A stretch of DNA of 64,000 nucleotides from Loxodes magnus (Eukaryota; Ciliophora; Karyorelictea; Loxodida; Loxodidae), in the NCBI GenBank assembly GCA_946699065.1, contig CAMPDV010000215.1, positions 62,001 through 126,000 of the forward strand, given 5' to 3'. How positions within the stretch are numbered: the stretch's first letter is position 1; the number at the start of each line of letters is the position of its first letter. Shown here in pieces: positions 2,729 to 61,892 of the stretch. The translations under genes were made by a program, and so were the position numbers. The notes beneath the pieces are model-generated. The model had not been told where the DNA came from. It was given only the letters and a program-made list of their open reading frames with translations, and made no database searches.

Positions 2729-3870
2729 AATAATATAGTTTGCTTAATAGCTTTGAAGTTTTAAGTCTAAACTCAATACACTTCTACTTTTAAGTACTCT
2801 TGAAAATGTTGTAGTATTTCTTCTTGTCTCATTAAGATTAGATTTACTTGTCTTATTTTCATTAAGTTTTAGAAAGAATATATTTGTTTTCATGTTTATT
2901 TTATTCTGCTTCATGTAGATTTTATTATTCTATCAATTTGATTCATATAGTCTTTTTTGGAAAATATTTAATTTATTATGTTTTAATTATATTCTAAGAG
3001 CTCTTGTTCTATATTTTCATAAATATTTGCTTAGTTTATATTATTTTACGCTTTATTTTTGCTTTTAATAATTTTATCTATTTAGGTTTTAATATTATCT
3101 ATAGTTGTTTGGTAGTATTTACATTTGAATATGTGTTAGAATGTCTCTTTTTCTTGACATAAGCATTAATCATATTCTTAAGGAATATGTCTTTCTTGAA
3201 GATCACTTCTAAAAAAAAGTAGTTAGGTTCTCAGTCTGAATATTAATTTTGATGGTTGCATTTTCTCTTTGTTCAATAAAAAGTAGGTTATAATTGGGAA
3301 TTTTTCTACATTTTTGAATTACTTTGTTATAATTTTTGCTGTGATCATTTCTTTTTTTCTTTTTTTTGTTGTTTTTGTTATTCTCTAAATTGTTTAATTA
3401 AAAAATTGTTCTTTAATTTTTACATCAATTTTTTTATCGAATTACATCATATTTAGATTTTATAAAGCTTTTAAATCTATTTTAAATTTCTTTTACATTT
3501 TTTTAATTTATTTCTGTTATTAAGTCTTATTTTTTTAACTTATTTAGAATAATTGGATAAACTTTTCATCTTTATTCTTAGATTATTACTATTGATTATA
3601 TAAGTCATTTAGTTTTCTATAAAATTTAAAATATCTTTTTGCAGTTATTTATTCAAATCCAAGTCAGTTAAAATCTATGTGTTGTAACTCATTTCAGGAT
3701 GAATATTTTTAAATATATTCATAAAATATTTACCATTAAAAACTTCTCTTATATGATAAAATTTATATTTATTGAAACTATAATTTTTCATTTTAGAAAT
3801 AAATATAAATTTATTATTTACTCTAACATATTTTACTTTACTTTTATTACAATTTTTTTAATTGTTTAAT
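2729..3870 (-). pseudogene. LINE ORF2 3' remnant (C-terminal zinc knuckle region)
   Basis: The minus strand encodes the C-terminal part of the LINE ORF2 found intact at 31,456-34,848. The diagnostic piece is the C-terminal zinc knuckle CLCQEKETFQHIFKC (3121-3165), which keeps the spacing C-x-C-x7-H-x3-C of the intact element (CMCGEYETFEHIFKC). Just before it is RSDLQERHIPQEYDQ, matching FRKDLQDRHYPIDNPY. A pentamer run (2696-2728) follows the 3' end. The more upstream part (to about 3870) is weakly similar and its limit is approximate. No endonuclease or reverse transcriptase motif lies within it, so it is a 5'-truncated or decayed copy. Confidence 0.65.
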
Positions 3871-4544: not shown

Positions 4545-4870
4545 AAGAAGGAACTGTTTATAATCGTACTTCCTACTCCCTGTCCAACCAAAAATATAAT
4601 TATTTCCAGGTCTAAATTCCCTCTATGCTCGAAGTTCCTCTTTTCACTGTCAAGTTTTCAAATCGGATTTATTGAATTTTAGTTTGCCTTCTTCTTAAAT
4701 ATATCCACAGGTTGGATAGAATTAGGCCATTTCACTCCATATTTTTTTCCTTATTTTCTCATTTTCCCAGCATTTCCTTCATTGATGTCCAGTCATTCCA
4801 GACTTGAAACATTTCTTTGAGAATCTTTTCTCTTAATCCCAGAATTTTTTTATTTTTCATTTGCTTATTC
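4545..4870 (-). pseudogene. Gag-like zinc-knuckle fragment (copy G2)
   Basis: The minus strand carries CFKSGMTGHQWRKC at 4770-4811. This is a retroelement CCHC zinc knuckle (C-x2-C-x4-H-x4-C) whose second Cys is replaced by Ser, so it is probably a decayed copy. Downstream residues match those of the copy at 22.6-23.3 kb: an NMEW...LILSN block here against NMEW...LILPN there, then ENLTVK in both. The nucleotide similarity is direct and includes ccctNtccaaccaa and ttcactgtcaagttttc. Zinc knuckles of this type occur in Gag or LINE ORF1 proteins and bind nucleic acid. The reading frame is not kept throughout. Confidence 0.55.
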
Positions 4871-10224: not shown

Positions 10225-13200
10225 ATGGAAAACAAGAATCTTTCTTTAATTACGAGAAAAACACTATCACTAATTTTCTTGAATAATAGAAAGCATCATT
10301 TAAAACAGGTCAAATTGAAAGAAAAATTGAAAAAAGTGGAAAGACCTACAATAAGTTTAGGGATATTAGAACCTTTTACTAAATAAAAATTAATTAAGAT
10401 TAAAAAACATTTAGAAAAAGCATTAGAAAAAGTGAGAAATAAATCTAAATTGTTATATAAAAATACCACTCAATGAATTAAAAAATTAAATTTTAGAATT
10501 TAAATAAGATTAGGAAGAATAGTTTAAACTGAAAAACTAATAAATCTCTGCATATTAAATGTAGATAAAATTACATAAAAATAATATTGACACATTATTT
10601 TTTTAAAAAGAAAATGAAATTTAAAATATAGTTTAATTTTATACCAACTAATTAAGAAATTATTTCAAAGAATAAAATGATAATCAAACTTAAACTCTTT
10701 AAGAAGGGCATATAAAATTATAATAAACTGATTAATAAATATAAGCTGATCAAATAACAAGAGAACTTTAGAAAATTATAGTTAAACTTCAACAAGTTAA
10801 TAATTCAATAAATATATTTAAACATCAAAAAAGTTTGTATATAATCGTGAAACAATGACTAATATTATGGAATAGCATCTAAATCATTTTTATTAGGAAT
10901 TATAACGATTGAAGTAAAATAATATGGAATAATAATAGGTTTGCAATACTTTGAACACTAAATATATTTAATTAATTAAGGAATATGGCCATTAGATTGA
11001 ACTAAAGTTAAATGTCTATGCTTAATTATCAGAAATTTAAAAAAATAAAAGGAAATCTTAGACTAAGTAATTTTAAAAACATTAAAATGAGATGTAGCAA
11101 AAAAAACCACTCACTTTATTGAATTCTTGGAAGAGAACTCAAATTCAACTTTAGATATTCCTAATTTCATTGCAAAAAATGATTACTCTCCCCATATAGA
11201 TTCTTAATCATTAGATTTATCAAAATTTGATAAGAGAAACTGGAGAAATGCTCATTTAAACTAAGAGAAATTAAATCTTAAATAACGTAATCTATTATTT
11301 AATTTTGATATTGAGGAAATGATAAAAAGATATAACTTCTAGAATGGAAAATTTGCATAATTTTTAAGATCATAAAAGTAAAAAAATTAAAATCTCTTTA
11401 CTACAATAGAAAATAGATTTGTTACTTTATCTTGCTAACTTGACTATGCTACGTGTGATGGAATTTCAATTCCTATAAAAAATAGGCAAAAAACTAACTT
11501 AACAAAATGATGCATTAACTTTATATATTATAGTTTGGTACAGAAATTCAATATTTTAGGCACCAAAATTATTACATATTTAAATAAACAATAATTAAAA
11601 GTTTCTTTGGATCTATGACCAAGGTCTTAAAGGTGTAGCCAAATCGAACTAATTAAAACTAGCGTATTTTTATATTAATTCAATTTAGAAAAATAATTAA
11701 GTATTGAATAATTAACTAAACGATAAGAAATTGATATATTTTCTATTAATGAAACTTGATAGCATTAAAACTTTATTCCTATATAAATTTATGGATATAG
11801 AACTTATTTCAAAAACTGTGAAGAGACTCGAAGAGCTGGTGTTGCTTGTTTTATTATTAAAGAAGAACTTGATCCTAAACAAATAGAATTGGATTTTGGT
11901 TAATAAAACAATCGTTTTCCACAAATAAAAGTAAATAATATATATTTTGCTACATGTTATATGCCAACAGATGAAAAATATTTAACAATAAAAGATTAAT
12001 CCTATTCAAATCTAGAATTAATACTTACAGAAGTTGGAGATCAAACACTTATGCTAATGGGTGATTTTAATGCCCTTTTACATGGATATGGTATCAATAA
12101 TTAACAAAACACTTAGAACAATGCTTAGAGATTGCTTAAATTCATTAAAGATTATGATATATAAATATTAAAAGATAAAAATTTGGATACTTTTAGAAGT
12201 AGTGCTAATAATAAAATATATTGCAATTATTATGTTATAGTCAACTATCATATTAACATTAACTATATTTATGAGTTTCAAAATTATATAAAGCAATGGA
12301 TTTGATACAGATCATTTTCCAATATTACTTAATTTACATATCTAAAATATTAACAGAAATATTCCTATACTACCTCCCAGAGTTAATTTTAAGATTAATA
12401 AACTCTAGAATTTAGAAGTTAGATCTGATTACAAAGCTCAATTTGATGGAAGTTCAATAAATTTTGAATTGATAAATGAAAAAGATATAGATGAACAATA
12501 TAATTATATTAAGCACATCCTAATAAACAACCCAGATAATATTTTAGGATAAGTTCGCCTAAATAATAATTTTAATAGATTACCACCAAACTTAATTTAA
12601 AGTTTTAATGCTGCGAAATAAGCACAAAAAGTTTATTAATAGGCCTTAGAATAATAAGGAAAATCAAATTAGATAGTAATAAAGTTAGTTTAAGAAAAAA
12701 TAAAAAATTTAATAGATATAAAAGAAATTACTGGTAATTCAAAATAAAATAGGCTAAAAATAATAGAGAAGAAATAATGAAATGAGCAACAATCCACTTA
12801 AAATGTTTAAATAAGCATAGAAAATTTTAAATCCAATGAAGTGCAACAATATGTATTTGGATTCTGAAGGATTTTTTCTTTTTATGAACAATTGAGAAAA
12901 TAATGTTTTCAATAAACATAAGGATATTGATTAGGTAGAGCTAAAAACAAGCAATAAAAAGATTTACAATATTTTTTTAATTTTGATTTTGTTAAAATGC
13001 TAAGAGTCTTATCGACAATGATTAAATCTCTTTAATTTTAATGAGGTTTAAGTAATAATAAGTAAACTAGCAAATAATAAATCATCAGGTGTGGATGGTA
13101 TTAAAGCAGAATGTATTAAATATGCAAATAAAGAGTTCCATATTGTTCTTTGAAAGTTTACGAATAATATGTTAAGAGAATAACGAATTCCTAATGAATT

Positions 13201-15110
13201 AAAGTAAATAAGAATTCTCCCTATTTATAAAAAAGGATCGAAAAGTAAATGAAAGAATTGAAGTCCTATAGCTCTTATTAATATAATTCTAAAAATTTAC
13301 GACAAATTATTAACTTAGAGAATTTATGAGTTTGCTAATTAGCGTAATATTATATACCCCTCATAAAAAGGATTCCTTAGAAAAGATTAAACTAAGCATC
13401 ATGTATGAACTTTGCAACAAATTATAGATTTGCATAGAAAGTGAGTAAAGAAAAAACATCTTTATACTACTCTTGTAGATGTAGAAAAGATATTTGATAC
13501 TATTGACAGACTATTAATTTTTGATCACTTAAGAAGAATTAAGCTTCCTTTAGCATTAATTAATAGCTTTGAATCTTTTTAAAAACAATTGAATGTTAGA
13601 TTTATTTAAAATGGAACCCTCTCTAGAAATTTACTCCATAATAACGGAGTTTTATAAGGGAATTCACATGGATCAGTTCTTGCTATTATCTTCTATGATA
13701 TTGTTATAAGATTTATTGAAATTTATCAAAAAAGTACGGCTTTAAAATATGTGGTTAAACTTTTATTAAGAAAGCTTGGGCAGATGATATAATCCTAAAT
13801 TCAGATGAAATAAACCTAATTCATTGATTTAAGCAACTTTTAAAATTTCTAGTTGAGTAAAATAATCTATCGATGTAGGAAAGTGTGAATACATCTGTTT
13901 CTTAAAGAAAAATAAAAGCTAAAATGATTCTAACTTTAAAATTACTTTTAATAACATATAGGTTAAAAAATCTAATTATATAGCATACTTGGGATACAAA
14001 TTTAATGAATATGAATACTATAAATCTCACTACAATGAAATCTATCAAAAGTTTAGATAATGTGTAAATGGCGCTATTTTGTAACTATCTAAATATAAAA
14101 ATATAACACCATCAAATTATGAACAGATTTTTCGATCATTTATTCTTCCAAAAGTAGAATATAGTTCAGAAGTAATTCCATGAGGTATAATTCGTGGAAT
14201 TCAAAAAATTAAAAATAATGTTCATGCAAGCTAAAGAAAAGTAGCAAGATAGGCCTCACAAAGTCCAAACTAGACATTTAATGAATCTTGTTTCATAGAT
14301 CTAAATTGATTACCATTTGAATACTACATTGCATTTAAATACATAAAATTCTATATCAAAATAAAATTAGAAACTTAATTACAACCTGATTTGAATATTG
14401 CTTTTCTTTTTAATAGATCTAAGAACGATAGCTTAGACCATTTTAAAAGCCTTTAGAATTTGTCCAAATACTTTTAAATAAATTTAGAAAATACTTATGA
14501 AAGCAAAGAATTAACTAAAGAATCTAAAATTTAATTTAAAAGAAATTCTACCAAGAGGTAGTGATTCGGATGAGTGATATGCCTATAGCAAGTCTTTATT
14601 TTGGAGAAATTTAAAATGATATAGAAAAGTTTCCTTGTTATACATATACAACACTTAACAAGAACAAAACAAGAGAAATAATTTCAATATAAAAACTAAG
14701 AACTTTCTGTTACAATTTTTAATATTATTTTAAGAAAAGACTTTATAAAATAAACCATTCAAAATTTTGTAATTGTGGATAATTGGATATTTTCGAAAAT
14801 ATTGAGCAATGTGAATTACTAAAAGATTTGATTTAATAATTTAAATATTTTAAAAACTATTTTTACTCAAACTTTTAACTTATAACTAAAATAACCTTAA
14901 TCAAAATTTATCAACCCGAAAATAATTTGAAAAGATAGATCTCGAAATAAAATGCTTCCATAAAAAACTAATTCAAAGAAGAAATCTAATTATTTAACAA
15001 AATGATGAATTTTTATAAGAAATATTGAACTGAGAAAGCTTTGGAAGCTATAATGAATACGAAGAGGAAGATAAAACAGATATGGAACAAGATAATTAAT
15101 CAATAAATTA
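10225..15110 (+). pseudogene. Decayed LINE copy with ORF1 and ORF2
   Basis: A diverged, frameshifted relative of the intact element at 28.9-35.0 kb. The left end is placed at the ATG preceded by an A-run (10225), as in the intact copy. The ORF1 C-terminal domain is recognisable near 11,410-11,650 (FVTLSCQLDYATCDG against YVTVTQDLEQGTCDS). ORF2 follows with endonuclease motifs SINETWQHQNF (near 11,740), MGDFNALLHG (near 12,060) and CYMP. The reverse transcriptase shows KWKNWSPIAL (near 13,250), DVEKIFDTID, NNGVLQGNSHGSVL (near 13,650) and AWADD (13,767-13,781). DLNWLPFEYY and the C-terminal knuckle FCNCGQLDIFENIEQC (His replaced by Asn) follow. Several single-base frameshifts, for example near 11,690 and 13,740, show it is dead. 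Trp codons are mostly TGA, and TAA/TAG stand for Gln. Confidence 0.9.
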
Positions 15111-28902: not shown

Positions 28903-28917
28903 TAATATCTTATAGTT
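28903..28917. repeat. Left target-site duplication of the intact LINE
   Basis: The 15 bases taatatcttatagtt are repeated exactly at 34,966-34,980, immediately beyond the other end of the element. This fixes the element boundaries and indicates a recent insertion. Confidence 0.9.
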
Positions 28918-28929
28918 AAAAAAAAAAAA

Positions 28930-31440
28930 ATGGACGAAATATAGAATTCACTAGTTTTTAATAGTGACTCTTCTTTAATTAATTTCAAAGAAGCTGCAAA
29001 TTCATAGGAAAAGCATAGGCAGGTGCATTAAAATCTCCAAACGAAAGATTTGGAGTAACTACAAATTAAATAAGTAAACCTAATAATGAATTTATTAAGA
29101 CAACTACTTAAAAATTGTAGTCAAAAACCGGAAAACAAATTCATACGCGTCCCATTAAAACTACTTAGGAACTCTCTTCAACGTGGATATTAATTGTAGC
29201 GTATTATGAAAGTGAAATCAACCTATAAATAGATGAACAGATTAACCGCCTAAAATAATACCGCGAAAGATACGAAACGATTACCTAAGAAATCTTTCCA
29301 AAAATAAGATATTATCTTAGATAGTTAGAATTCAAAAGATATACCTTCAAATCCTAATTAAAATTCAAATAAAGATATCCTTTTATGGTAGTCAAAAATA
29401 ACATAAACTTAAGATTCATTTTTGAATAATACTAATTAACAATTCTATTAAATTTCAAATAACGAAATTAATCAGAAATAAAATAATACTACTAATCCTG
29501 ATAATTCAAATAATCATTATTTACCTGATCTTCAGAGCAAACAAGCTTAAAATTAAACTGCTGATTTAAGAAATGTAATATAAAATCAAATAATTAATTA
29601 GTCTAATGAGAATTTATTTACCTTAGAAATAAAAGAACTTAAACATAATATATAAAGACTTATAGATAAGAACCAATAATTAAATGAAATGTTAATTAAT
29701 ATAAAAGCAAAATATGAACGAGATATTGAAACATTGATAAGTAACTAAGAAATATCCAAAATATATTATAAAACTTATATAAATAAAATTTATTAGAAAT
29801 ATAAACTATTATAGAACAATTTTTAGTCAATCAAATCTGATATATAGCAATATCACAAAAAAATGCTATCAAAATAACTAGTTCATAAAATTACTTAAAC
29901 AAACTTCTCCACTTATTACAGTAACTAAATAGTTTAAACAGATGAAATAATTAGTATATTTCAAGAAATTTAGATATAATAGAAAAACTATGAGAATTAA
30001 GTCAATTCAAAATATGAAATATAATCTAATTAAGAGATTCAAATTGAAGCCAATGCTAATTAAAGCTTTACTTAAGCTTAAATGATAGGAGCAAATAATT
30101 CACTATGCCAAAACTTTAATAAAATTAAAAATTTTACTTAAATTGAAATAGATAACTTTCTAAATAAAACTTAGCAAGGATATCAATAGACTATATTAGA
30201 ATAGAACTAATATTTACTTCAACAAATTACCTAATAAAAAATAATAAACGAAATTTAACTCCAAGAGTTATATTCTTAATATTAAAAATTATAAAACTAA
30301 AATAAGTAATTTATAGATTAAGAATAGAAAGCTTAAATGGAAATTTTAACTTTTAAAATCGAATTAGATAAGTAAAGATAATAAAAATATGAAATAAATA
30401 TAGCTTTTCAAAATTAAATTCTATTAAAAAATAAGGAAATTCAAATGTATAAAGAATTATTTTAGAATTAAATCTAACATACAAAAGAATTCAGTAATTA
30501 ATAGTAATTTTAGAAGAAGTAATTTGTAGATGCATAAACTTAGACATTATATGGAAATATTTAAACAAAGGATAGTATTATCTAAACAGATAATATAAAT
30601 AAATAATAAACAGCTTTTTTGTGTCAAAAATTTACTCAAACAAATATAATCAAGCAAGACAAGTTAATGTAAACTTAAAATAATTAATAGGAAGCATAAA
30701 CTAATACTATTATAACATAACATAATAACTAATACTGTCAAATAAAATTGCCAGATGAAGATTTTGTTTTACTATAGCATTAGTATCACTAACTCAACTT
30801 AAAATTCATTTAAAGTACCCAAAATATGTAGACACTTGAGATAAAAATAGAAGAGTTTTAAAAACTTAATTAAAATTTGAAAAAAGATATATTTAATTAT
30901 TCTACTAAAAGATGAAAAAAAGATTAATAAAACTAAACAGATTCGATCGATGCTATTTATCAGAATTAAGCCTTATCTTCCAATATTAATCTTAATATTC
31001 TTAAAAGGAAACATGAAGAAGAAGATAAAACAATTCCGCCAGCAAAACGTATGAGTAAACATAATAATAAAAAAGAGTGCGATTAAATAATATGTTATTT
31101 CAATCTGACTAGTCTATAACTTTAAAAGTTTATTAAATCCGAAACTTGAAGACGTCCATAGTACGAAATGCACAATATATAAGGTAGATATGTCACAGTT
31201 ACTTAAGATTTAGAATAAGGTACATGTGATAGTGTGAAAAGTAAAATTGATATAGATAGAAAGCTACTTAAAAAATATACGACGTAAGTAATATATATTT
31301 TGATACAATATTTTCATTAACATCCTGAGTATGGAAAAAGATTAGTACATATTTAGATTAACCAATAAGGATAGAAAAGCATTTGCATTTACGAAAGTGG
31401 TCTATCTGCAGGCTCGGAAAAAATTAGAAAGGACTAATAA
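28930..31440 (+). CDS. LINE ORF1 protein, Gln-rich coiled coil plus conserved C-terminal domain
   Basis: 835 codons read with TAA/TAG as Gln and TGA as Trp (TGA at 30,913 and 31,147). ORF1 proteins bind the element RNA and accompany it to the target. The N-terminal part is Asn/Gln-rich. The middle (about residues 220-650) is Gln/Lys/Glu-rich with heptad-like spacing, suggesting coiled-coil multimerisation. A basic stretch (LKRKHEEEDKTIPPAKRM, near 30,996-31,050) resembles a nuclear localisation signal. The last 120 residues contain ETWRRPQ and YVTVTQDLEQGTCDSVKSK. The same region is recognisable in the copies at 11.4 kb and 39.4 kb, so it is the conserved functional domain. No CCHC knuckle is present, unlike the Gag-like remnants. 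The end is placed at TAA TAA (31,435-31,440), which is followed by ATT TAA and then the ORF2 ATG in the same frame. Confidence 0.85.
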
Positions 31441-31455
31441 ATTTAAAAAATAAAG

Positions 31456-34400
31456 ATGGGACATATAAATATTAATGGAATAGCGAGCAAGTGCTTGAAT
31501 ATTGAAGAATTTATCAGAGATAACAGTATAGATATTTTATCAATAAACGAAACCTGATAAAAAGATGACTTTCCTCCAATATTGATAAATGGATTTAAAA
31601 CATATTTTAAGAACTCAGGAAAAGGAGGAGGTGTATGCTTAATTGTAGGAGAAGAATTTAATAGTACAGAAATACATATATAAGTTGAAAAAGAAATAAA
31701 TAGATTCATAACAATTAAACTGGATAATATTTTAATCACGTCTTGTTACATGCCTGATAATGGAAAAAGTTAAGATGTTAAAGATTTAGCTTATGAACAA
31801 CTAAATACATTGCTGAATTTATATAATGATAATCCACATATACTAATGGGAGATTTCAATGCTCTTTTATAAGGCTTCGGTGATAATCCTGAAAATGCTT
31901 ATGATAATAACATTAGACTATAAGAATTCTTACTATAAAACGATCTTGAGATAGTGAATGATAGCAACATTAATACATGTATTCACAAAGGAACAGGAAA
32001 AACGTATTGTAATGATTATATCATTATAAACAACCATTTGAACGTTAATTAGTTTGCAAATTTCACTGCTCATAATAATAGTTTATTTTCTGATCATATT
32101 CCAATCACTGTCGACTTTATCAATAATTCTATAGTATATTGGGAAAAGATAACTCAGAGAAAATATAAAATAAATAGGTTATAAGATGCAATAGATAGAT
32201 AAAAATATTAAGAATCTTTCCTACAAACTTATCTAGAATTCTTTTAAATAGATTAAGATAATCTTGAAGATTAATATGAATGCATCAAAAGTAATATTTA
32301 AGACAATGCTGATCAAACATTAGGTTCGTTTATTCCAGATTCAAATTATAACAAACTTCCTCGAGCTCTCACAAAGAAATATATAGAGGCAAAAAGAACT
32401 AACTCAGAATATAAGGAAGCTCACGTAAGATTTGGAAGAATAAACTAGCAAGTAACTAATCTTCATGAGGAAGCAAAACGACTTTGGAAAGACTTCAAGT
32501 ATAATCTATGAAAATTTAAAAAAAACGAAGCAAAAAAGAAATTTCTACTTCTTAATGGAGATTCTAGGGAAATTTTTTCACAGGCTAAGAAAATTTTAAA
32601 TCCTTTGAAGAGAAATACTATGAACTTTAATTAAGAAATCAAAAATAAATTCATTGAATCATGGGAAAATTGTGTTTTTAACAAGCATTATAATCTAACT
32701 CAAGAATAGATAAATCTTAGTAATTAAAAAATAGATAAAATATACGATAATATTTAAGAAATTAAAGATTATCCACTCTCGTATTTGTAAGGATTTGATC
32801 TTTTTACCATAAAAGAAATCTAAGAAATTATAAAAGAAATTCCGAATGGAAAAGCAGCTGGTCCAGATGGAATAAAAGGCGAACTTCTGAAATATGGTGG
32901 ATAATATTTATTAATAATTCTTCATTCTTTTCTGAATAATATGCTAAGACTTGGAAGAATCCCTTAGGAATTAAATATATCGGTGATAATTCCAATATTT
33001 AAAAAAGGAAATAAAGATGATTGGAAAAACTGACGACCTATTTCTCTTATTAATACTATTCTAAAACTATATGATAAAGCTTTAACAAAAAGATTATACA
33101 ATCTGATTTATTAGAGAAATTTGATTCACCCTTCATAAATGGGATTTATGAAAAACAGATAAACAACTTAATAAATTTGAATAATATAACAAATAATTGA
33201 TAACTATCGGAAATGTGCTAAAGGTAAGACTAAATTGATAGCAACACTGATAGACGTTGAAAAAATGTTTGACTCAATAGAAAGAAGACTCTTGTTTGAT
33301 TAACTTAAGAGAGTTAAACTACCACTTGGAATAATAATAGCCTTAGAATCGTTTTATAAAAACCTAAATTCTTCATTTATCATAGATGGTAAGAGCACCA
33401 GAACTTTATAATTCAACAATGGAGTTATGTAAGGAAGTTCTCATGGACCAGTTTTAGCATTATTGTATTATGACATAGTAATTAGATATCTGGAAAGTAA
33501 AAGTAACTAATTGGGATTTAAATGCCAGGATTCAAGTATTAGCTTCGCTTGTAGAGGATGGGCAGATGATCTTATTCTTCTTTCCAAATCTGCAAAGTAG
33601 ATGTAGAATTTAATAAATGAAGCAAATAAAGTTTTTGCATGAACACATTTAAAGATTAATGTTACCAAATCCGAATGCATCTAATTTCTAAAGAAGAATC
33701 AGAAATAATAAATTTTAAATTTATGATTAGGAAATTAGCCAATTGCTTAAAAAGAACAAGTAACATATTTAGGAGTTATTCTACATTAGAAGAAGAACTT
33801 AAATCCCCATTGCAAAGAAACTGCATTCAAGTATATAGCTGCAATGAAGAAAGCTGTTTTTTAACTGATGAGATATAAGAATGTAACTCCTTGACATTTT
33901 AAAACTTTATGTAGACTTTTTACATTACCTAAAGCAGAATATGGAGGAGACTTAGTACCATGAAGTATTCAAAAAGGAGTAACTGGAGTTCTGAACAGAA
34001 TAGAATCAAGTATGAGATTAATTTCAAGAAAAGCTTTTTAAGTAGCAACTTCAACATTTAATGAATCATGTTATATAGACCTGAATTGATTACCCTTTAA
34101 GCACATTATGGCTATAAAATTCTTCAGATTCTACCATAAAATTAAATAAGAAAGTACTGATTTTCCAAGATCAACAATAGGCTCTCTTTTCATTAATATA
34201 TGGAAAAAAGGATTTCAATACTACGATTAAGTGTAGCAATTATCAGACCTTTATAATATCGATCTGCAGAATTAATAGAATAATACCAATCTTAAAACTT
34301 TTACTAAACATGTAAGAGAAAAAATACAACAATATTTCTACAAAGTAGCTACTAAAAAATTTATGAGGATGAAAACAGCTAGAGTATATACTGAATAATT

Positions 34401-34848
34401 TGGTAATCTTTAACAATTTCCAAAAATTACTTATACTAAATTAAACAAATAGTATAGACGAGAAATTATCAGTATATATAAACTTAGAACCTAAACTTAT
34501 AATTTCCGTAAGGATCTTTAAGATCGTCATTACCCCATTGATAATCCCTATTGTATGTGTGGAGAGTATGAAACTTTCGAGCATATCTTTAAATGTGTGT
34601 ACTATTCTAATATAATGAATTGATTATCGGAAAATATCGGAAATTATGACTTAAGGCGCCTTATACTATACGATCAAGAATATCTAAACTCATTTTCAAG
34701 GTCTAAATTGGAGTATTTAGACTTATAGATCAAAATATTTCATAAGAAGCTAATGACAAGGAGACTTGAGATTCTAGAAATGGAGAAAGCAAAAAAGGAA
34801 GAAGCTAAAGATGAATAGAAAGAAGAACTAATTAAAGAAAAATGATGA
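31456..34848 (+). CDS. LINE ORF2: AP endonuclease and reverse transcriptase
   Basis: About 1,129 codons in the same frame as ORF1, 15 bases after its presumed stop. Domains in order: AP-like endonuclease with GHINING at the start, INETW (31,543-31,557), MGDFN (31,846-31,860) and SDH (32,089-32,097); a linker; the reverse transcriptase with IPNGKAAGPDGIKGELL, DDWKNWRPISL (33,016-33,048), DVEKMFD (33,253-33,273, catalytic Asp), NNGVMQGSSHGPVLALLYYD and GWADD (33,556-33,570, catalytic Asp pair); a thumb region with PKAEYGGDLVPW and DLNWLPF; and a C-terminal knuckle CMCGEYETFEHIFKC (34,552-34,596, C-x-C-x7-H-x3-C). Before the presumed end there are ten in-frame TGA and six TGG codons, several at family-invariant Trp. 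The end is uncertain: tandem TGA TGA at 34,843-34,848, or TAG at 34,945-34,947, 18 bases before the element end. Confidence 0.95.
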
Positions 34849-34965
34849 AATGTAAACAAGATTAAAAAACTATTTAAAAACATTTACTAACGTCTATAAT
34901 TGAAAGAAGCAATTCTTGCAATTAAAGACGTCAAAAAACTCTTTTAGTTTAAATTTAATTTAATT

Positions 34966-34980
34966 TAATATCTTATAGTT
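34966..34980. repeat. Right target-site duplication of the intact LINE
   Basis: Exact repeat of 28,903-28,917, directly after the pentamer tail of the element. Confidence 0.9.
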
Positions 34981-37414: not shown

Positions 37415-37669
37415 TATATATAAAAAATAAATTAATATCATAAGTTTTCTTATTATAAGCTTAGTAAAATATTATATATTCATAATCTCTTTAGATAACT
37501 TCATAATAATAACAATTAAAGAAAGTTAAATTACTTTATGTTTAGATTTAAGAATTTAAAATAAGTACTATAGTAAAAAATAAAATAGTAATATAAAAAA
37601 TATAAGTAAATATATCTTTAATTATCTACTTATAAAGAAATTATTAACTTTAAAAGGAAACCCTTTTAA

Positions 37670-38470
37670 ATGGATATTCTTGAATAAGAGTATTAATATG
37701 CTTAAGTGGGGGACAATTAGTTTAAGAGAACCAGTTTTATCGTTGGTTAATTAAAAGTTTTACTCTTTCACAAATACATGGAAAATATAGATCCATAAAA
37801 GTGTTAAAATAATGAAAACTTAAAAAGATATCAGGTTCATTTCTAAATTGAGGATTTAATTGATATTATGTAGATTACTGCTAGTTTATTTTAAGTATAA
37901 CTTAAAAAAGAAATTATTTTTAATCCAAAAATTAAATTTATTTTAAAATATCTTACAAATTAGAGAAAAATGAGAAAACATTACTTTTTTAAATGTAAAT
38001 AACTAAAAAAAGCAGAATAAAATAGAAATTTTAAGTTAAAATATTATTCTATTATTTAATAAAAAATATTTGCAAAAAATTAATAATATTTTTGCTTCTC
38101 TTATAGACTAAATTTTTTGAATAATTGAAGATAAAATTTTTGATATAAAAATATTTACAAATTAATCTTACTATAGCATATAATAACAATAATTACAGCA
38201 ACTTTAAGTTAAAGCAAATCAATAACTATAAGGAAAAGAAAGTGAAAAAATATTAAGGATAATGATTAGGAAAAATTTTTCAATCTTATTTTAAGGAAAT
38301 ATTTAGAAATAAAAATTAAAAATTCTTAATCTTAAATAAGATAAAAAAATAATTGATGCGAATAAATTATATAAATTGAGAAAATAAAGATTAAATTATT
38401 GTAATTGCATAATTTTATATTATTTAAATACTTAAGTTATCAATTTATTTCATTTATTTATATTGGTTTA
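37670..38470 (+). CDS. Coding-like region in duplicated segment, unknown
   Basis: From ATG 37,670 the frame reads MDILEQEYQYAQVGDNQFKR, then TSFIVGQLKVLLFHKYMEN, and later FQIEDLIDIMQITASLFQVQ and LTNQRKMRKHYFFKCKQLKK. Copy B encodes the matching EQENQIKYAQVRDNQFMRTS near 55,216-55,275, but lacks the ATG and changes frame soon after. The agreement YAQV-DNQF-RTS between the copies is the main support. No domain is recognised. The 3' limit is arbitrary because the sequence grades into simple DNA. Confidence 0.35.
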
Positions 38471-39048
38471 TTAAAAAAATCTGTTTATTTTTATATGAAA
38501 CTTGGCTTAATTTTTTAAATTCGCTAATTTAATCATAGTATTATACATTAAAAAGTACATTGAGATGAATTAATTTTGTAATATTTATCAATCTATTCTC
38601 AAATAGATTTTAATTAGAAAAATATAACATTTTTTTAATTTTATTAAATAAAAATATTAACCATATTTATGATTTATAGTCAATAAGAACATATACTATA
38701 ATAACAGCATTATTTATTTAACCTAAAAGAATATCATTCTACTTTTTGTTTTTAATATTTTAAAGTTTAGAATTTATTTCTAATTATTTTAGTATTTTAA
38801 ATTTCTTACAATCATTTCCATAAATTTTGATTGTAGCATATCTTTCGACTTATTATATATAATAATTTTTGAAAATACTGTTTGCTATAAATTCTTTAAC
38901 ATTCATATTTTTTCAACTTAACATAATCAACCGAAAATTTTAATTTTATTTTAAATTCTCGGAAGCATGTAATAATTTAAATTTTAAAATAAAATAGATT
39001 AATTTAAGTATTTTTTAATATCTTTTCAGTATTAGTCTTTTATTTTAA

Positions 39049-39062: not shown

Positions 39063-39770
39063 AATTTATCAATTAAGTCAAAGATTACGATATTTTAGTT
39101 CTATAAAACATTAATTTACTGGAAAATATGAATCAAATTTAAATTTCTATGTATTAATACTCTTCAAATTAACAGTTCTATCAATCAAATATTTCAAACA
39201 ATCTTTTTAGATTTTTGTTTATTCAAATCAACAAAGTATAAGCTAGTACACGAAATAAAATATTTAGAAGGAAGAATCCATAAATGAACTGAAAAGATAA
39301 TGCCAAAATTCATATATTTTTTTTTTAAATAACGTATTAACAAAACTGAAGAAAGTAATATTATCATAAAAACTATTATGCTAATTCGAAATAACTACAG
39401 GAATTTATAATATTTAACCTCTGAAGAAGAAAATACTTATAAAACAGTAATCTGTAATAGATATATTGTAATTGATTAAGAACTTGAAAAAGAATAGTTG
39501 AGTGTCGGGTATTTAAAATTAACATTTATAAAGAATTTTTGACAATATATAGAAGAAGATGCATCTGCATAATAGAATAAATTCGATTAGCATTAAGAAC
39601 AAAAAAAATCTCCATATTGAAATTAATGGATTAAAAAAGGAAATTCTAATTTATGAATTTGTATGAAAGAATGTTCTTAATCAAATCCGTAAATAAAACA
39701 AATAAATTTAGGTTATGTCAATATAGATGGCATTGCAACTAAAATTTATTCTATTCAGGAATTCATCATT

Positions 39771-39790
39771 GAAAATGACTTTGAATTTTT
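39771..39790. repeat. Left target-site duplication of the nested LINE
   Basis: gaaaatgactttgaattttt is repeated with one difference at 40,344-40,363 (gaaaatgactttgacttttt). Both lie in the endonuclease codons of the host element, which continue correctly after the insertion. Confidence 0.9.
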
Positions 39791-40343
39791 GTTAAATAAT
39801 TTCAAAATTTGTCTTAGTTTCCAGTAATAACATATACAAAACTTAATAAGCATTACGTAAGAGAAATTAATAGCATTTATAAAATGAGAACCCAGTCTTA
39901 CAATTTTCGGAAGGAATTATAAGACCGTCATTATCCTATTGATAATCCTTATTGTAAATGTGGAGAATATGACACTTTAGATCATATAATGATATGTATA
40001 TATTATAAACACTTAAGGAACTGATTTTTATAACAGGTTGGGAATCTTGATATTAGGAAATTAATAATTTACGATTAGATATATATTAATTAATTTCCTA
40101 GAAAGTAATTAGATTATTTAGATCTTTAGATTAAAATTTTTCACAGAAAACTTCTATCTTTCAGGGTGCAATTCTTGGATGTAATAGATGGGAATGAAAG
40201 AGCAGAATTCAAGTTGAACAAATTGAAGAAGAGAGAATGATGATTTGTTTTTTAAAGACTTTTAAAATGTCTTTGATTGAAAGAATTAATTCTTGCAATT
40301 AAAGATGTCCATAAACACTTATAGTTAAAATTAATTAATTAAT
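39791..40343 (+). mobile_element. Nested 5'-truncated LINE copy
   Basis: 553 bp holding only the 3' end of the element. It starts in codons equivalent to QFGNLQQFPKITY of the intact ORF2 (here QFQNLSQFPVITY). It carries the intact knuckle CKCGEYDTLDHIMIC (near 39,955-40,000) and RNWFL (Trp TGA), ends with LAIKDVHKHLQ, and has a short ttaattaattaat tail. The frame is uninterrupted. 5' truncation, a short A+T tail and a 20-bp flanking duplication are standard signs of target-primed reverse transcription. The insertion is younger than the element it interrupts. Confidence 0.9.
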
Positions 40344-40363
40344 GAAAATGACTTTGACTTTTT
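40344..40363. repeat. Right target-site duplication of the nested LINE
   Basis: 19 of 20 bases match 39,771-39,790. The host endonuclease reading resumes here with ENDFDFFSINE. Confidence 0.9.
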
Positions 40364-41824
40364 TTCCATTAACGAAGTACATGCTAAATAATAGTTTGTA
40401 TCTGTTATAGTAAATGGATTTCGAACATATTATAAAGATGCTAACGGGAGAGGAGGCGTCTGTATATTGACTAAAGAGAAACTAAAAAATACTCAAAAAA
40501 TTTAACAGGCAGATGGAGAGGTCTTGCTAAGATTTTGCGCAATAAAACTTGATGATATAATCTTCACTCCTTGTTACATGCCAGATAACAATAAGACAAT
40601 ATATATGAAAAGTGAATCTTAAGAAATTCTTAACGAAATAATTAAAGCGTATTTCTATAATGCTCATATTATCCTAGGTGACTTTCACGCACAATCGGCC
40701 ACTGTAAATAAAGGACTTAAATCATTTAAATCTGAAAAAAAATGTATTTATACTCTCAGTAGATACAAGAATATATCTTCCAGACATTTCAAAATGTTCT
40801 ATCTCATTTTTGCACTTCCTAAGGCTGAATACGGTGGAGAGCTGGTTCTTTTAGCTGTAATGAGAGGCTTATAGAGTATGAAAGAGAAGATAAGCAAAAG
40901 CACGCGTATAATGGACTATCACTGTCTTTAATTGGGCTTGCTACATAGACCTTAACTGACTACTATTTGAGGAAATAATGGCTAAACACTTTTTTCTATT
41001 TTACTTTAAAATACAGAAAGAAGTTAGGACTTATCCAGAATCCGATTTAGGAAGAATCTTTGAAAGCACTTTTCCACTCGATAATGACATTTATATTAAT
41101 CATATTGGAAATTATTAGATTAAGTCCGCAACTTAAAGATTGAAGATATTTCTTTCCTGCATTCCTCGCTAAGTTTAGTATAATTTATAGCAGGAAATTT
41201 TTGAAAACTTTCAAATTACTCTCTGAAAATCTATGTATGTGCATATCTCTAAAGTGTTGAATTGCTTCTTAATAAAATTTGTTTCTTATGATATCTTAGA
41301 TAAATTTCTCTATAGAAAGTTAGTTATAAATTATAATTTGATAGATATTACTAATTCCAGAAATAAATGCATCTTTTTAATCACTAAAAATAAAAAAAAT
41401 TTTAGTTTCAATTACTCTGTCTATGCAGAAGAAAAGATTCATTTAAGTATATCTTCGAATGTGTCCATTATTTGGACTCACTTAGAAATTTTTCTTATAG
41501 ATTTCCTGGAAAAAACTTGGAAAATATAATAAATTATGAACATCTCTACATAAACTAGCATTTCGCTTCAAAAATAAACGGATACAGACCTTCAAATAAA
41601 AATTTTCAAAAGAATCTACTAAAAAAATAATTTAAATTGTTGGACAAAATACAAATAAATAACTAAAACTTAAATAAGAACAGCCAGAAAATATAAGAAG
41701 CAACAAGAAAGAGTCGGAAGATGAAAAGAACGATGGTTGAACTTTATAAACATAATTAAAATGAAGTAACTAATTCATATTAGTGACTTCATTTCATTAA
41801 AATTTTTATTAAAGTGATTTTTTC

Positions 41825-48103: not shown

Positions 48104-51060
48104 TATAATGTTCGCCTTTTAGCTTAATAAAATAATTTTTTATGATATCACTCTCCTTTTTAAACTCATTGGCCTTCATTATTGTTTTGATTTGACTTTA
48201 TTTTTTTATTGTTTTGATTCTCTTCTTCTTTAATCTTTGTTCATATTAAAAATAATTATTTTAATTTTTTATTCTCATATTACTAATAGATTTAGTTTTC
48301 TCTCATTCATTCTTAAAATCAAGTTATTTGTCAATTTTTTGTTTTATTCTAGGTCATTTTTTATCTTAAATCAATATCTTCTAATATTTATTTATTCTTT
48401 TTTGTTTCTTAATTTATTAAAAGTTGATTATATGCTAGCATCTCTTTCAATTTTTTATTAATTTAATTTTTTATTTGATATTTATTCTTTCCTTCTTTCC
48501 TTCTTTTCAGATTTATGTTTGCGCTTAGATTTTATAATGTTTCTTGAATCTGAAGACTATTTTCTTATATAATTTAACTGTAATATTAGCCATCAAAGAC
48601 GTGTTCAAATTTTTCTTATTGCTTACAAATACGGCATATTTACTCATAATCAATATATCTTTCTTGAGTAATCAGCTCTAAAAAATATTAATTGAATTTT
48701 AAGTCTATAAATTAATTTTTATTCTTTTATTAATTCTTTGTTTGTTGTTATATAAGTAATTTTTTTAAATTTAGTCTATTTTTATATTGTTTATAATTTA
48801 TATTTGCTGCTTTCATATCTTATATTCACTTTATTGTTTCTTTGAAATAATTTTTTTGTATATTTTTTTAGATTTCTTTAGTATAATTTTTTATGTTAAG
48901 ATTTTTTATTTATTCATTGTTTATTTCATAGAATTTTTCAATTTTTTTAATGTTTTTTTATATTTTGAGTTCTATTTTTAACTGTGTTTGAAAAGTTATT
49001 AGAATTTTGTATCTTATCTGCTTTTTTCTTTTTATCGATCATTTCTGAATTAATTTTATAGGTTCTTGCAGAATTTTAAAAATCTTTATGCTGTTGAATC
49101 TTCAAATTTATATAAATTAAAATCTATATACTATATCTATTTAAATAATGCTTGCGGAATTTTCAAGCATTTTCTTATGATTTATCTCTGTGCTATTTAA
49201 ATTTTATTCTTTCATTTTGCAATTCCTACTTAAATACTATATGGGATTAATTCCGAGTATTCAAGTTTTGGCATTATAAATAATCTGAATAATTTCTTAA
49301 AGTTAATTGGCTATGTTTTATTATAATTTTTAAAGAATTAGCATTAGAATATAAATATCGATTATAAAATTTCTTAAAGAGCTACTCAACCTTAACCTTT
49401 TCTTCATTAAGTTAGTTTATTTGATATCCTAGGTATTAAATTTAATATTTCTATTAAATTTTTTTCCTAATAGAAAAAGTTCAATCTCTTTGTTCTTTGC
49501 GTTTTTATTCTTGAGTATTTATATAAATTCGCATTTCTCCGTGTTAATATTAAATCTTTATTAATTTAAAAATTTTTCAGTTTCGTTTAATAAAATTTAC
49601 ATATTTTCTTGGTTATTTAATATGAGTACTAAATATCTGCTCAAGCAAGTTTAACATGATAAATATTTTGAATTTTATGACCTAGATTTTCATATTCTTC
49701 TAAATATCTTAATACTATATCATAGTATATTATTTCCAAAAGTGGTTCACTTGAGCTGCCTTGTAAGACTCCATTTACTTACCGATTTTTTCTTGTTATT
49801 TCTTCATCAAGATAGAAGTGTATTTATACTTTTTAATAAGTATCTTTTATTATATCGATTATATTTTACGAAATGTTTAATCTTTTCATCTGGTCAAATA
49901 AAAATTCACGATTTATTGTATCGAACATTTTTTCTACATCAATCAATGTGATTAATAAGTTTTCATTTTCTTTTTCTTTTTATTTATACAGTTTTATATT
50001 TTTGCTTTAATTATCATATATTATTAGACGTTTGCATCTTTTTTATGAATCCTTTTTAATCTTTATTTAATATGTCTTAATATTATATTTCTTAATATAA
50101 TTGGTTAGTTATTAGTTTATCAAATATTTTTTAAGATACGTTTATTATTGCTATTAGTGGTAATTTTTTCAATTTTATTTATTTCTTTTTTTGTGGAGCA
50201 TTATTATTTTGGCTTTGTTCATATTTTAGGTAATTTTAATTAATTCTAACAATTTTAGAAAAATTGAATAGTATTTATCATAGTTCGTGAAATGCGTTTT
50301 TTATTAGATCATTTGATATTGAATTGAATCCTTAAGCTTTATTGTTAGGTAAAAATCTTATTACATCTCATACTTATTAATATAAAATATTTTCTCATTT
50401 TTAATTTTCTTTTAATCTTCCTTTAAAATTTGTTCCATAGATTTTATCAATTTCTTTATTAATTTTTTTATTTTAGTATAAAGAAAGGTTTTATTATTTT
50501 TTAAATACATTTTCCCCCAATTTTGAATGAATTCTTCTTATTAAATTTTAGTTAGGTTCATTTTTGTTCCTTTTTTTGGATTTAAAATCTTTTGGCTTTT
50601 TGCCATTTCTTGATTATTACCATTTAGAAATATTTATTAATTATTTTTATTTTCCTGTTATTCTTCTTTTTTACATTTTACTATATTTGTTTATTTCTTT
50701 TAAATACTTCTTTTTAATTTTTAATATTTAATCATTATTTCTATTATATTAATTTATTTCTTACATATACAAGTTTCTAGCTTTATTTTTTCTCAACATC
50801 TATTAGTATTATTTTTAAGACTTTTTAACCTCTTGCTGTCTTTTGATTACTACACTATTGAATGTTGATATATGAATTAGATTTATAATAAAGTCTTATT
50901 ATTCTTCTAGGTTTTTTTCATCCATAAATTAATTAAAAAATTCATATGTCCCTCTATATTCTTCTTTATACTATAAGTAATTAAATTAATTCTAAATTTT
51001 ATAAATTTTACAAATTTTCCAATATTTAATCATATTTAATTTCTGGAAGAATTTTTTCTT
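48104..51060 (-). pseudogene. Decayed minus-strand LINE ORF2
   Basis: The minus strand gives, 5' to 3': linker NGNNQEMAKSQKILNPKKG (near 50,600), RT start LPNNKAQGFNSISNDLI (near 50,310), NVSQKIFDKLITNQLYQE (near 50,100), FIKKMQ, then NGVLQGSSSEPLLEIIYYDI (near 49,740), RYLEEYEN and AWADI (near 49,640; the second catalytic Asp is lost). The C-terminal knuckle appears as CRICKQQEKFEHVFDG (near 48,590-48,640; last Cys lost). Many frameshifts lie between these blocks. The endonuclease is not found, so the copy is 5'-truncated or deleted at about 51.06 kb. A Gag-like remnant in the same orientation lies just upstream. Confidence 0.85.
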
Positions 51061-51189
51061 ACTTTAAATCCATATGGATATAGCAACTTATCGGAGAATC
51101 ATTTTTTATTAATATGATAATTTTTTATCTATTTTTTTAAATTATTTTTTATTTATTTATTTATTAATAATAATTTTATTATATTAAAG

Positions 51190-59410: not shown

Positions 59411-61892
59411 CTATTTGATCAAAGCAGTTTTTAATTATTTTACTTTAATTTCTTATTTTTGTTGAAACTTTTTTAAAATTTGGTACTTTTTTTATTTTGC
59501 AAGTATTCTATAAAAAAAAATTTATTCTCATTAATTTAAAAATTTTTATTACCTAAACTAAATATTTTAAATTCCTCTAACTTAATACAAGAAATATATT
59601 TTTTATTTAATGAGTCTAAATATAATTTTTTGCTACTATTTATTTTTACTTTATATAAGTATATAAATTAAACAAATTTAAACTACAATATTTTAAGATT
59701 GCTTTTAATTCAGACTAAAAAGAAAGAATTAGCCAAGCTTGAAGTGAAGATTTATTTTTAAGCATTAAATGTATATGTGATAAACACACTAAAGTGACAC
59801 CATATCAATAATTATTTTAATTATATTATGTTATTATTGTCTCTATAATTAATTAATTATGCTTAATAAGAAATTATATAGTTTTTTATAATAATAGTTT
59901 AGTTTTTATATTACTATATAATATTATTACTGTAGTTAGATTTAGTTATTCAGAATAAATAAATAGCACCGATATAGATTTATTTTGTATTTTTCTTCTA
60001 TAAAATTATAATATTAAAAGAGTAAAATTACCATATTTTAAAGAATATTTATCTTAATATACTATTAGAAAGAAATATATATAATAAAATTTAAACTTTT
60101 ACGTTAAATTTTTGAATAGCAAATAGATTATTTTAGTATTATATAATTTAGAGATTTTAGAATATGTTTTAAATATTTATTTTATATAATAATATTTACA
60201 AAAATATGTATAGATAAATAAAAATAATTTATATTAAACAATAGCAATAAAATTATTAAAATAAAGGCAATATTTAGTAAAATACCTTTAATTGTAAACA
60301 AAAGTTTAGGAGTTATTAATTTATAAATAATGCATTATATTTAAAATCGAAGACTTTAAATAAAATAAAAAGGATCGTATAGCTATTGAGATAGATGAAA
60401 ATTAAGTGCTTGTTGAATTCTAAGAAAGAATGAGTGGATGAGATAATTATTTAGCAAGTTATTTGCAAAATATCTTTCGTTAATGTAAATAGACTCAAAA
60501 GCAAAAATTATCTTTTTCATTCTTTTTAGTATACAAAATTAATAAAATAAATTTACCTAATTTATATTGCAAAAAGTATAAAAATTTAATTAAAATGATT
60601 TATTACTTAAATATATTAGAATATACTAAGTTATTTCAATTAATAATTAAAATTAGAAAAAAAAGAAAATTTTTAACGAAAAAAGTAATTAATTATTGAA
60701 AATCAACTATTCTTAATCTAAAAAAATATTTTAGTTATTTTATTTAGAAAAAATAAGTAAGAATTGTATCTTTAAATTTTTGTTTAATGAATTACAAATT
60801 GAATTATGTATTTATAAAGAATGTTTTTATATTTGCTATAATAAATTAAATATTATCTAAAATTAAGTTATAGATACAAAATTAATAAAACAGTTTATTT
60901 CTTTATAATTAATTTGTTTTTTTATTGATTTTATATTAATTCTTTTAGCTTTTAAATATATTATACTTTCTAGTTACTAATTTATTATTTTATAATATTT
61001 TAAAATTAATTAGTTTTCTAAAGTTTAAGGAATTAATAAAAGAAAAATACTAATACTAAAGTAAATAATAGTTTTTTATTATATTATGTGGTTTAAATTT
61101 TATAGCAATTGACTATTAGAAAAATTTACATAGTATTTTTCCGATAAGCAAAAAGAGTGGTAGTATTTTTTACAAAATAGGCATTTTTAATTATAATTAT
61201 ATAATTTTTTTTAAGTTTTATAGTTAAATATAAAAATAACAAAAATACAACAAAAAGAAATAATTTAATTAATTTTAAACTTTCTATATTAATTTCGCTA
61301 TTAAATTTATCTATTTTCCATTATAATTTTTAATCAAAATTAAATTATAGAATTTATATATTTTTTGAAACTTATTCTTATTGGAATTAGGCAATAAAAA
61401 TAATTAATTATAAACAAAAATTAAAAAATAAGTATAAAATAAAAAAGACTTAAGAGAATTAAATTAGATAATTTTATTCTAAAAAATAAATAAAAACTAG
61501 CTTGAGAAAATATAGTAAGTCAGTAATTGAGATAAAATTTAAATTTTTTAGTAATTTTAAATAAAAAATCTATTAAAAATGCTATTAAAATAAATTAACT
61601 TTAATATTGGTTTAAATTATTACTAAAATAGTATTATTCTTGCTTTGATCTAGAAGGGAATTCAAAATTTAATAAGTAAAATAAATAACTGAAAATAATT
61701 ATAATCAGACAAAATATATAAATTATGCTTTTGAATCAAAAAATGAAAAGTGTAAAATACAAAACTAATTATTATATTTATTATAATCATTTAAAATATG
61801 GAATCCGTCACTCAAGCATAGCTAGAGTGGTGGAACCTACACTCTAATCTAAGTCTAACTATAGTACCAGTTGAACATACTGTCTCTACTTG
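59411..61892. other. A+T-rich stretch, with a small G+C-richer patch at its end
   Basis: About 2.4 kb of simple A+T-rich DNA without a feature. The last 95 bases (61,798-61,892, from ggaatccgtcactc) are G+C-richer and adjoin the breakpoint of the LINE copy. They match nothing else in the window and do not fold as a tRNA by eye. Confidence 0.45.

What the first reader, a model, noticed from the sequence alone, without database searches (positions are those of the whole stretch)
28930..34848. All three stop triplets appear to be read as amino acids
In an otherwise undamaged 6-kb element TAA and TAG fall at Gln positions (the Q of the MQGSS block is TAA) and TGA falls at tryptophans. ORF2 has ten TGA and six TGG. 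TGA sits at Trp sites shared by independent, diverged copies: NETW (11.7 and 31.5 kb), the second Trp of WKNW (13.25 and 33.03 kb), PW before GI/SI, DLNW (14.3, 34.09 and 40.9 kb). Random TGG-to-TGA decay would not leave zero frameshifts. This matches the karyorelict or Condylostoma type of code, not the Tetrahymena code in which TGA stops. The host identity is inference.
Basis: partly seen in the sequence, partly recalled or inferred. Interest (0 to 1): 0.9.

Follow-up and report, generated by a model that had tools for sequence, protein, structure and literature searches.

The report
Retrotransposon reading all three stops

Summary
A LINE retrotransposon lies at 28918-34965, flanked by an exact 15-bp target-site duplication. 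With all three triplets masked before alignment to diverged copies in the window, TGA scores best as tryptophan. In those copies 13 of 18 well-aligned in-frame TGAs sit on its Trp codons against about 1% expected; TAG does so 0 of 23 times. TAA is clearly glutamine; TAG is most likely glutamine, but E and K are not excluded. Codon-position conservation and the fresh insertion argue against decay. Best reading: a karyorelict-type code (NCBI table 27), TGA being Trp inside genes and stop near the mRNA 3' end. Host genes, tRNAs and eRF1 could not be checked: the own-genome search did not complete (14 tries) and no host gene was found in the parts of the window scanned. The code type is known. New may be the LINE's form: ORF1 and ORF2 share one frame with no stop between them, as such a code would demand.

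The parts
28903..28917 (+). Left target-site duplication, TAATATCTTATAGTT
   Evidence: Exact match to 34966-34980; a common string of 15 or more in 1 of 19,868 random flank pairs
28918..34965 (+). Complete LINE (element A), 6,048 bp; 5' end is a run of 12 A directly before the ATG; 3' end is an AATTT/TTTAA simple repeat
   Evidence: Limits from the duplication
28930..31455 (+). ORF1 part: Q-rich N-terminal 661 codons (no TGA), then a C-terminal part with TGA at 30913 and 31147; same frame as ORF2
   Evidence: the C-terminal part is conserved in copy B at 11.4-11.7 kb; no Pfam family above its cut-off
31456..34842 (+). ORF2 part: endonuclease (Exo_endo_phos/_2), reverse transcriptase (RVT_1), C-terminal Cys/His motif (seen by eye); 10 TGA, 6 TGG, 41 TAA, 14 TAG
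   Evidence: Pfam RVT_1 4.8e-30, Exo_endo_phos_2 6.8e-11, Exo_endo_phos 3.8e-9; codon counts; best solved relatives by sequence are LINE-1 ORF2p (E 1.6e-24)
34843..34848 (+). Tandem TGA TGA, the probable stop; also tandem in copy C
   Evidence: that it is the stop is inference
34890..34931 (+). 3' UTR stem-loop, possibly the reverse-transcriptase recognition hairpin (role inferred)
   Evidence: Folds the same way in A and in copy C (40267-40308) despite sequence differences
34966..34980 (+). Right target-site duplication
11406..14997 (+). Copy B, diverged and frameshifted; TGA at Trp sites 11757, 12893, 13250, 13259, 13406, 14181, 14307
39635..40308 (+). Copy C, 3' fragment ending in tandem TGA and the stem-loop; TGA at 40022 matches Trp TGA 34621
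40323..41690 (+). Copy G, fragment abutting copy C; TGA at 40957 (DLNW)
48297..51174 (-). Copy D, more distant, decayed; TGA at 50171 and 50016 opposite Trp sites (the second in an alignment below the local-identity filter)
61708..63978 (-). Copy E, 59% amino-acid identity to A in well-aligned columns; TGA at 63871 and 62952, TGG at 62408 and 62417; no ATG at the ORF2 start
2878..3702 (-). Copy F, 3' part; TGA at 3666 (DLNW)
4580..4832 (-). Copy H, zinc-knuckle-like stretch, probably of an ORF1 (GHQ-TGA-RKC), aligned with copy I at 22910-22670 where the same site is TGG
   Evidence: E 8.9e-7; two shifted frames of the same stretch also align (E 2e-5, 1e-4), so the frame is my choice; the motif name is recalled

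Best explanation
Element A is a recently inserted, protein-coding LINE of a ciliate-type host whose ribosomes read TAA (and probably TAG) as glutamine and TGA as tryptophan inside coding sequence, with termination at TGA only close to the mRNA 3' end (NCBI table 27 type). ORF1 and ORF2 are translated as one uninterrupted frame from an ATG 13 bases into the element to a tandem TGA about 120 bases before its end. The element then inserts by target-primed reverse transcription, leaving a 15-bp duplication. Shown here: the frame, the codon meanings by comparison of copies (TAG weakly), the duplication and a hairpin shared by two copies. Inferred: the host and its code, that the tandem TGA is the stop, that the two ORFs are made as one protein, and the insertion mechanism.
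For: Masked comparison of copies: TGA scores best as W (11.8 against Y 7.0, n=29), TAA as Q (13.3 against E -1.6, n=151); the same method recovers 54 of 56 sense codons. First version, anchored on A only: W 7.3 against Y 3.2, TAA Q 11.1 against E 0.0, controls 51 of 54. TGA and TGG interchange at Trp sites: A TGA / E TGG at 33031, A TGG / B TGA at 33022 and 32662, A TGG / E TGA at 32485, and H TGA / I TGG in a second family. 13 of 18 other-copy TGAs lie on A Trp codons, TAG on 0 of 23. The A:G third-base ratio of Trp codons (12:7) does not differ from that of K+E+Q (415:110; Fisher p 0.15), as expected of synonyms. Third positions are the least conserved in all six copies compared. Profile of 57 outside proteins: TAA is Q (LL 7.7, next -1.7). 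Fresh insertion. The last in-frame TAA is 108, TGA 74 and TAG 9 codons before the tandem TGA, like the published Loxodes pattern in which UGA and UAA but not UAG are depleted before stops (PMC11441545, passages).
Against: The outside profile alone prefers Y (0.79) to F (0.10) and W (0.04) for TGA, largely from one column (NYRPIS); TGG itself scores only W 0.46 / Y 0.41 there. TAG is unresolved without using TAA=Q (K 10.8, E 9.5, Q 6.7); with it Q 17.8, E 14.0, K 13.0. 5 of 18 TGAs in the other copies lie on non-Trp residues (E 2, V, H, C). Of 30 well-aligned columns at A's Trp codons, 15 have TGA or TGG in the other copy and 15 something else (L 5, TAA 2, R 2, Y 2, N, I, S, H). An unfiltered all-against-all version, which mixes antisense and shifted frames, gave Y -4.1, W -13.7 for TGA. 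No host gene, tRNA or release factor was examined. The tail of about 120 bases after the tandem TGA is longer than the mean 53-base 3' UTR of Loxodes (PMC11441545, passages).
Confidence: 0.8

Rival explanations
1. The host uses the Tetrahymena/Paramecium code (TGA is the only stop), and the element and its relatives are dead copies in which TGG decayed to TGA.
For: TAA as Gln fits code 6; the window is very AT-rich (about 20% GC), without a recognised gene where scanned, and so could be germline-limited DNA; the first TGA of the frame comes only after 661 codons.
Against: A fresh insertion with an exact 15-bp duplication and no frameshift seen in 5.9 kb, yet 12 of 19 Trp codons are TGA; TAG, the equally likely product of a G-to-A change in TGG, is at Trp sites of A in 0 of 23 cases; TGA and TGG interchange in copies only 35-62% alike in well-aligned columns; conserved protein continues in frame beyond the first TGAs.
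Confidence: 0.07
2. Condylostoma-type code (table 28): all three triplets are sense inside genes and all three can stop near the mRNA end.
For: Same internal assignments; not separable from table 27 by internal codons.
Against: Two copies (A and C) end in tandem TGA; an in-frame TAG stands only 9 codons before the end of A, whereas all three triplets decline before stops in Condylostoma (PMC4967479, passages).
Confidence: 0.12
3. The host has TGA as its stop, but the element is decoded by its own route, for instance a tRNA-Trp reading UGA present only when the element is active, or A-to-I editing of UGA to UGG in its RNA.
For: The codon comparison shows only how the element family has been read, not the host genes.
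Against: ARAGORN (bacterial setting) finds no tRNA gene in the window; needs an added mechanism; a second family would have to depend on it too.
Confidence: 0.04

Closest known systems
Karyorelict nuclear code, NCBI table 27 (Parduczia, Loxodes)
   Same: TAA/TAG Gln and TGA Trp inside coding sequence; TGA at the end; [quoted passage not shown]
   Different: UGA is only 0.120% of codons in Parduczia and 0.042% in Condylostoma (PMC4967479, passages); here it is 12 of 1,971 (0.6%) and outnumbers TGG 12 to 7. Window GC is about 20%; Loxodes coding sequence is 33.5% GC and 3' UTRs 18.6%
Condylostoma magnum code, NCBI table 28
   Same: All 64 codons translated inside genes (PMC4967479, passages)
   Different: There TAA and TAG also stop; here the two ends seen are tandem TGA, and TAG stands close to one of them
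Paramecium germline LINEs, Groups 1-3
   Same: APE and RT in ORF2, an ORF1, short simple repeats at the 3' end; Group 3 has both ORFs in one frame (PMC5405496, section 7 and passages)
   Different: Paramecium elements are thought to need +1 frameshifting, re-initiation or read-through of an ORF1 stop; here no stop separates the ORFs if internal TGA is Trp
Tetrahymena thermophila Tt.REP
   Same: Ciliate non-LTR element with endonuclease and RT in ORF2 (PMC6564038, passages)
   Different: Two ORFs; its ORF1 is described as a potential zinc finger protein. Its codons could not be examined (the 2004 REP paper is not held)
Amoebophrya sp. ex Karlodinium veneficum nonstop code
   Same: All three triplets are sense; UGA probably Trp, UAR probably Gln (PMC12005148, passages)
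   Different: 65.2% AT and its retroelements are mostly LTR, 2.0 of 2.1 Mb (PMC12005148, section 10 and passages); the window is about 80% AT and LINE-rich
Blastocrithidia nonstop code
   Same: All three triplets are sense, UGA Trp
   Different: UAR is Glu there (PMC12153298, start of abstract in the listings); here TAA scores Q 13.3, E -1.6

Membership tests
NCBI table 27 (karyorelict code) | UAA read as Gln | tested here: met
   in the element family
NCBI table 27 (karyorelict code) | UAG read as Gln | tested here: inconclusive
   Q best only when TAA=Q is used (Q 17.8, E 14.0, K 13.0); otherwise K 10.8, E 9.5, Q 6.7; outside profile E 0.27, Q 0.26
NCBI table 27 (karyorelict code) | Internal UGA read as Trp | tested here: met
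   in the element family only; the outside profile alone says aromatic, Y ahead of W
NCBI table 27 (karyorelict code) | UGA is the stop close to the mRNA 3' end, UAA and UAG are not | tested here: inconclusive
   Tandem TGA ends A and C; no transcript ends known
NCBI table 27 (karyorelict code) | Host genes genome-wide use the code; tRNA and eRF1 fit | not testable with these tools
   Own-genome search unreachable in 14 tries; no tRNA found in the window
NCBI table 28 (Condylostoma code) | UAA and UAG also act as stops at gene ends | tested here: inconclusive
   The two ends read (A, C) are TGA; only LINE copies seen
NCBI table 6 (Tetrahymena/Paramecium code) | UGA is a stop, absent inside coding frames | tested here: not met
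   12 in-frame TGA in a fresh element, many at Trp sites shared with other copies; host genes not seen
Non-LTR retrotransposon (LINE) | APE-type endonuclease and RT in one ORF | tested here: met
Non-LTR retrotransposon (LINE) | Target-site duplication and simple-repeat 3' tail | tested here: met
Ciliate LINE clade (Paramecium groups with Tetrahymena REP) | Groups with them in an RT tree | not tested
   No sequences of those elements were at hand

The most novel reading that the evidence does not exclude
A LINE family reshaped by a code without a dedicated stop: because an internal TGA far from the mRNA end is read as Trp, ORF1 cannot be ended separately, and the element has become one polyprotein frame of 1,971 codons (176 former stop triplets) with almost no 5' leader and its only stop, a doubled TGA, next to the 3' hairpin. 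TGA is here the majority Trp codon, unlike the two table 27/28 species whose UGA usage I saw in print. If the host proves not to be a known karyorelict or Condylostoma, it would also be a further lineage with such a code.
Probability: 0.4. Interest if true: 0.65.

Novelty: new member of a known kind. Interest (0 to 1): 0.5.

Why it matters
Codes in which every codon is sense are known from a few ciliates and other protists, and how such organisms tell stop from sense is still studied. A mobile element whose copies diverged while using TGA as Trp is a record of the code written by selection outside host genes, and it allows a test: two-ORF elements should lose their internal stop under such a code. 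It also gives a warning for annotation, because standard or code-6 translation would call this intact element a pseudogene.

Tried and rejected
Decay of TGG to TGA in a code-6 host was tested and rejected for this element. TGA as Cys was never among the three best residues. Blastocrithidia-like UAR=Glu is rejected for TAA, not for TAG. A whole-window all-against-all codon comparison gave no support for W (Y -4.1, W -13.7, n=80); I dropped it because its alignment list contains antisense and shifted frames of the same elements, and repeated it with sense-frame columns only. In one search the printed partner counts mix three frames of one stretch and are not used; they hold, beside one TGA-TGG and one TGA-TGA pair, nine TGA pairs with other residues and one TAG-TGG pair. 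Tetrahymena chromosome-breakage sequence: 2 matches at up to 3 mismatches, 5.04 expected by chance. Host genes: Pfam six-frame scans of 15.2-20.1, 22.0-26.5, 35.0-39.6, 42.0-46.8, 51.8-56.7 and 56.7-61.6 kb and one-strand scans of 4.0-10.0 kb (-) and 47.4-48.2 kb (+) gave nothing above a curated cut-off. Not scanned: 1-4.0, 10-15.2, 20.1-22.0, 26.5-28.9, 39.6-42.0, 46.8-47.4, 48.2-51.8 and 61.6-64 kb (in part known LINE copies) and the other strands of 4.0-10.0 and 47.4-48.2 kb. Rfam and ARAGORN found nothing in the window. Relatives in viral contigs: no pattern match; in GTDB contigs: 6 pattern matches, none a relative. AlphaFold of the ORF1 C-terminal part from one sequence was too poor to use (mean pLDDT 40). 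Searches used ORF2 one base out of frame and are void (one protein search lost); repeated.

Full report
What is there. Positions 28918-34965 hold a complete LINE of 6,048 bp. It is bounded by an exact 15-bp direct repeat (28903-28917 and 34966-34980). In 19,868 random pairs of stretches of the same sizes from the window, a common string of 15 or more occurred once. The element starts with a run of 12 A, then the ATG at 28930, and ends in an AATTT/TTTAA simple repeat. ORF2 starts at 31456 and matches RVT_1 (4.8e-30), Exo_endo_phos_2 (6.8e-11) and Exo_endo_phos (3.8e-9) above their cut-offs. By sequence its best solved relatives are LINE-1 ORF2 proteins (E 1.6e-24), found with TGA given as X.

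One frame. From 28930 to 34842 there are 1,971 codons in one frame, of which 122 are TAA, 42 TAG and 12 TGA; TGG occurs 7 times. I saw no frameshift: domains and copies follow the one frame. For the Q-rich first 661 codons the frame rests on codon usage alone. Under code 6 the protein would be cut at 12 places, including inside the reverse transcriptase.

What TGA means. I masked TAA, TAG and TGA as X on both sides, aligned this frame with the other LINE copies of the window, and kept columns with at least 32% identity in the 24 columns around them: 2,041 columns. TGA then scored best as W (7.3; Y 3.2), TAA as Q (11.1; E 0.0), and 51 of 54 sense codons were recovered. Adding 575 sense-frame columns between the other copies gave TGA W 11.8 (Y 7.0), TAA Q 13.3 (E -1.6), and 54 of 56 controls. 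TAG was not resolved by itself (K 10.8, E 9.5, Q 6.7); with TAA taken as Q it became Q 17.8, E 14.0, K 13.0, with 57 of 57 controls. Ordinary Gln codons also scatter to K in the first version (CAA and CAG scored K first), so I read TAG as probably Gln.

Counts behind this. In the other copies 18 well-aligned in-frame TGAs were found; 13 lie on Trp codons of element A (9 TGA, 4 TGG), against a background of 0.96% (p 5e-23), and 5 on other residues (E 2, V, H, C). Of 23 in-frame TAGs of the other copies none lies on a Trp codon of A. At A's Trp codons 30 columns are well aligned: 15 are TGA or TGG in the other copy, 15 are something else, 2 of these TAA. TGA and TGG change places: A TGA / E TGG at 33031, A TGG / B TGA at 33022 and 32662, A TGG / E TGA at 32485. 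A second family, probably its ORF1, shows the same at a zinc-knuckle-like Trp: TGA in copy H, TGG in copy I (best frame E 8.9e-7; two shifted frames also align more weakly, so the frame there is my choice).

Outside evidence. A profile from 57 outside proteins (of 70 found) assigns TAA to Q firmly (7.7; next -1.7; 24 columns). For TGA (9 columns) it says aromatic but puts Y first (0.79), then F 0.10, W 0.04, largely from the NYRPIS column; TGG (5 columns) itself gives W 0.46, Y 0.41. TAG (7 columns) is E 0.27, Q 0.26. It assigned 27 of 32 sense codons with 8 or more columns correctly. So the outside profile does not decide between Trp and Tyr; the copies do.

Against decay. The insertion is fresh by its perfect duplication and unbroken frame, yet 12 of 19 Trp codons are TGA. 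A TGG-to-TAG change should be about as frequent as TGG-to-TGA and is not seen at these sites. Copies differ least at second and most at third codon positions in all six comparisons (for E identities 0.71, 0.80, 0.53), so the frame evolved under selection while it carried TGA. The A:G third-base ratio of Trp codons (12:7) is not different from that of Lys, Glu and Gln codons together (415:110, p 0.15), as expected of synonyms.

Where translation ends. A ends in TGA TGA at 34843, and copy C has the same doubled TGA in a poorly conserved tail. After it comes a stem-loop that folds alike in A (34890-34931) and C (40267-40308). The last in-frame TAA lies 108 codons before it, TGA 74, TAG 9. From the ORF2 rate of TAA (41 of 1,129) a gap of 107 codons has a chance of about 2% by my own arithmetic. 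In Loxodes UGA and UAA, but not UAG, are depleted just before the stop (PMC11441545, passages). This favours table 27 over 28, but it is one element, and that the doubled TGA is the stop rather than two Trp is inference.

ORF1 and ORF2 together. They share one frame in A. At the ORF2 start copies B and E have no ATG (E is cut by the window's end 22 bases further up); the other copies were not aligned that far. [quoted passage not shown] Under a code in which an internal TGA is Trp, a separate ORF1 end is not possible, and a fused frame is what one would expect. I found no paper that describes this in the listings of my seven searches, but the library holds only open-licence papers and I read parts of a few.

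Host. The window is about 20% GC and holds about eight LINE copies or fragments (A to I, F and H perhaps parts of one). Pfam scans of most of the rest found no host gene (the parts left out are named under tried and rejected), and ARAGORN no tRNA. The own-genome search did not answer in 14 tries. A karyorelict such as Loxodes fits by code, by abundant LINEs of 5-6 kb and by the base composition of its UTRs (18.6% GC), less by its coding GC of 33.5% (PMC11441545, sections and passages). Amoebophrya (65.2% AT, mostly LTR elements; PMC12005148, section 10 and passages) and Blastocrithidia (UAR=Glu; PMC12153298, abstract in a listing) fit worse. The host remains inference.

Verdict. The code type is known. 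The fused-frame LINE, with TGA as the commoner Trp codon, is the part worth following.

Noticed in passing
window 37423-39025 and 54962-56539: Two stretches repeat each other in blocks over about 1.6 kb at 74-89% identity, 17.5 kb apart; no Pfam match above a cut-off.
   Followed up: partly
window 40267-40338: Copy G seems to begin directly behind the 3' end of copy C, one LINE fragment right behind another.
   Followed up: no
window 22594-22628, 2699-2728, 48088-48102 (minus strand): TTTAA-type simple repeats of three to seven units lie at the 3' side of the LINE copies I, F/H and D, as in element A.
   Followed up: partly
window 28918-28929: The element's whole 5' leader is 12 A before the ATG, which seems very short for a LINE.
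   Followed up: no
window 4580-4832 and 22670-22910 (minus strand): A second family with a zinc-knuckle-like motif, probably in its ORF1; the ORF1 of element A gave no Pfam zinc finger.
   Followed up: partly
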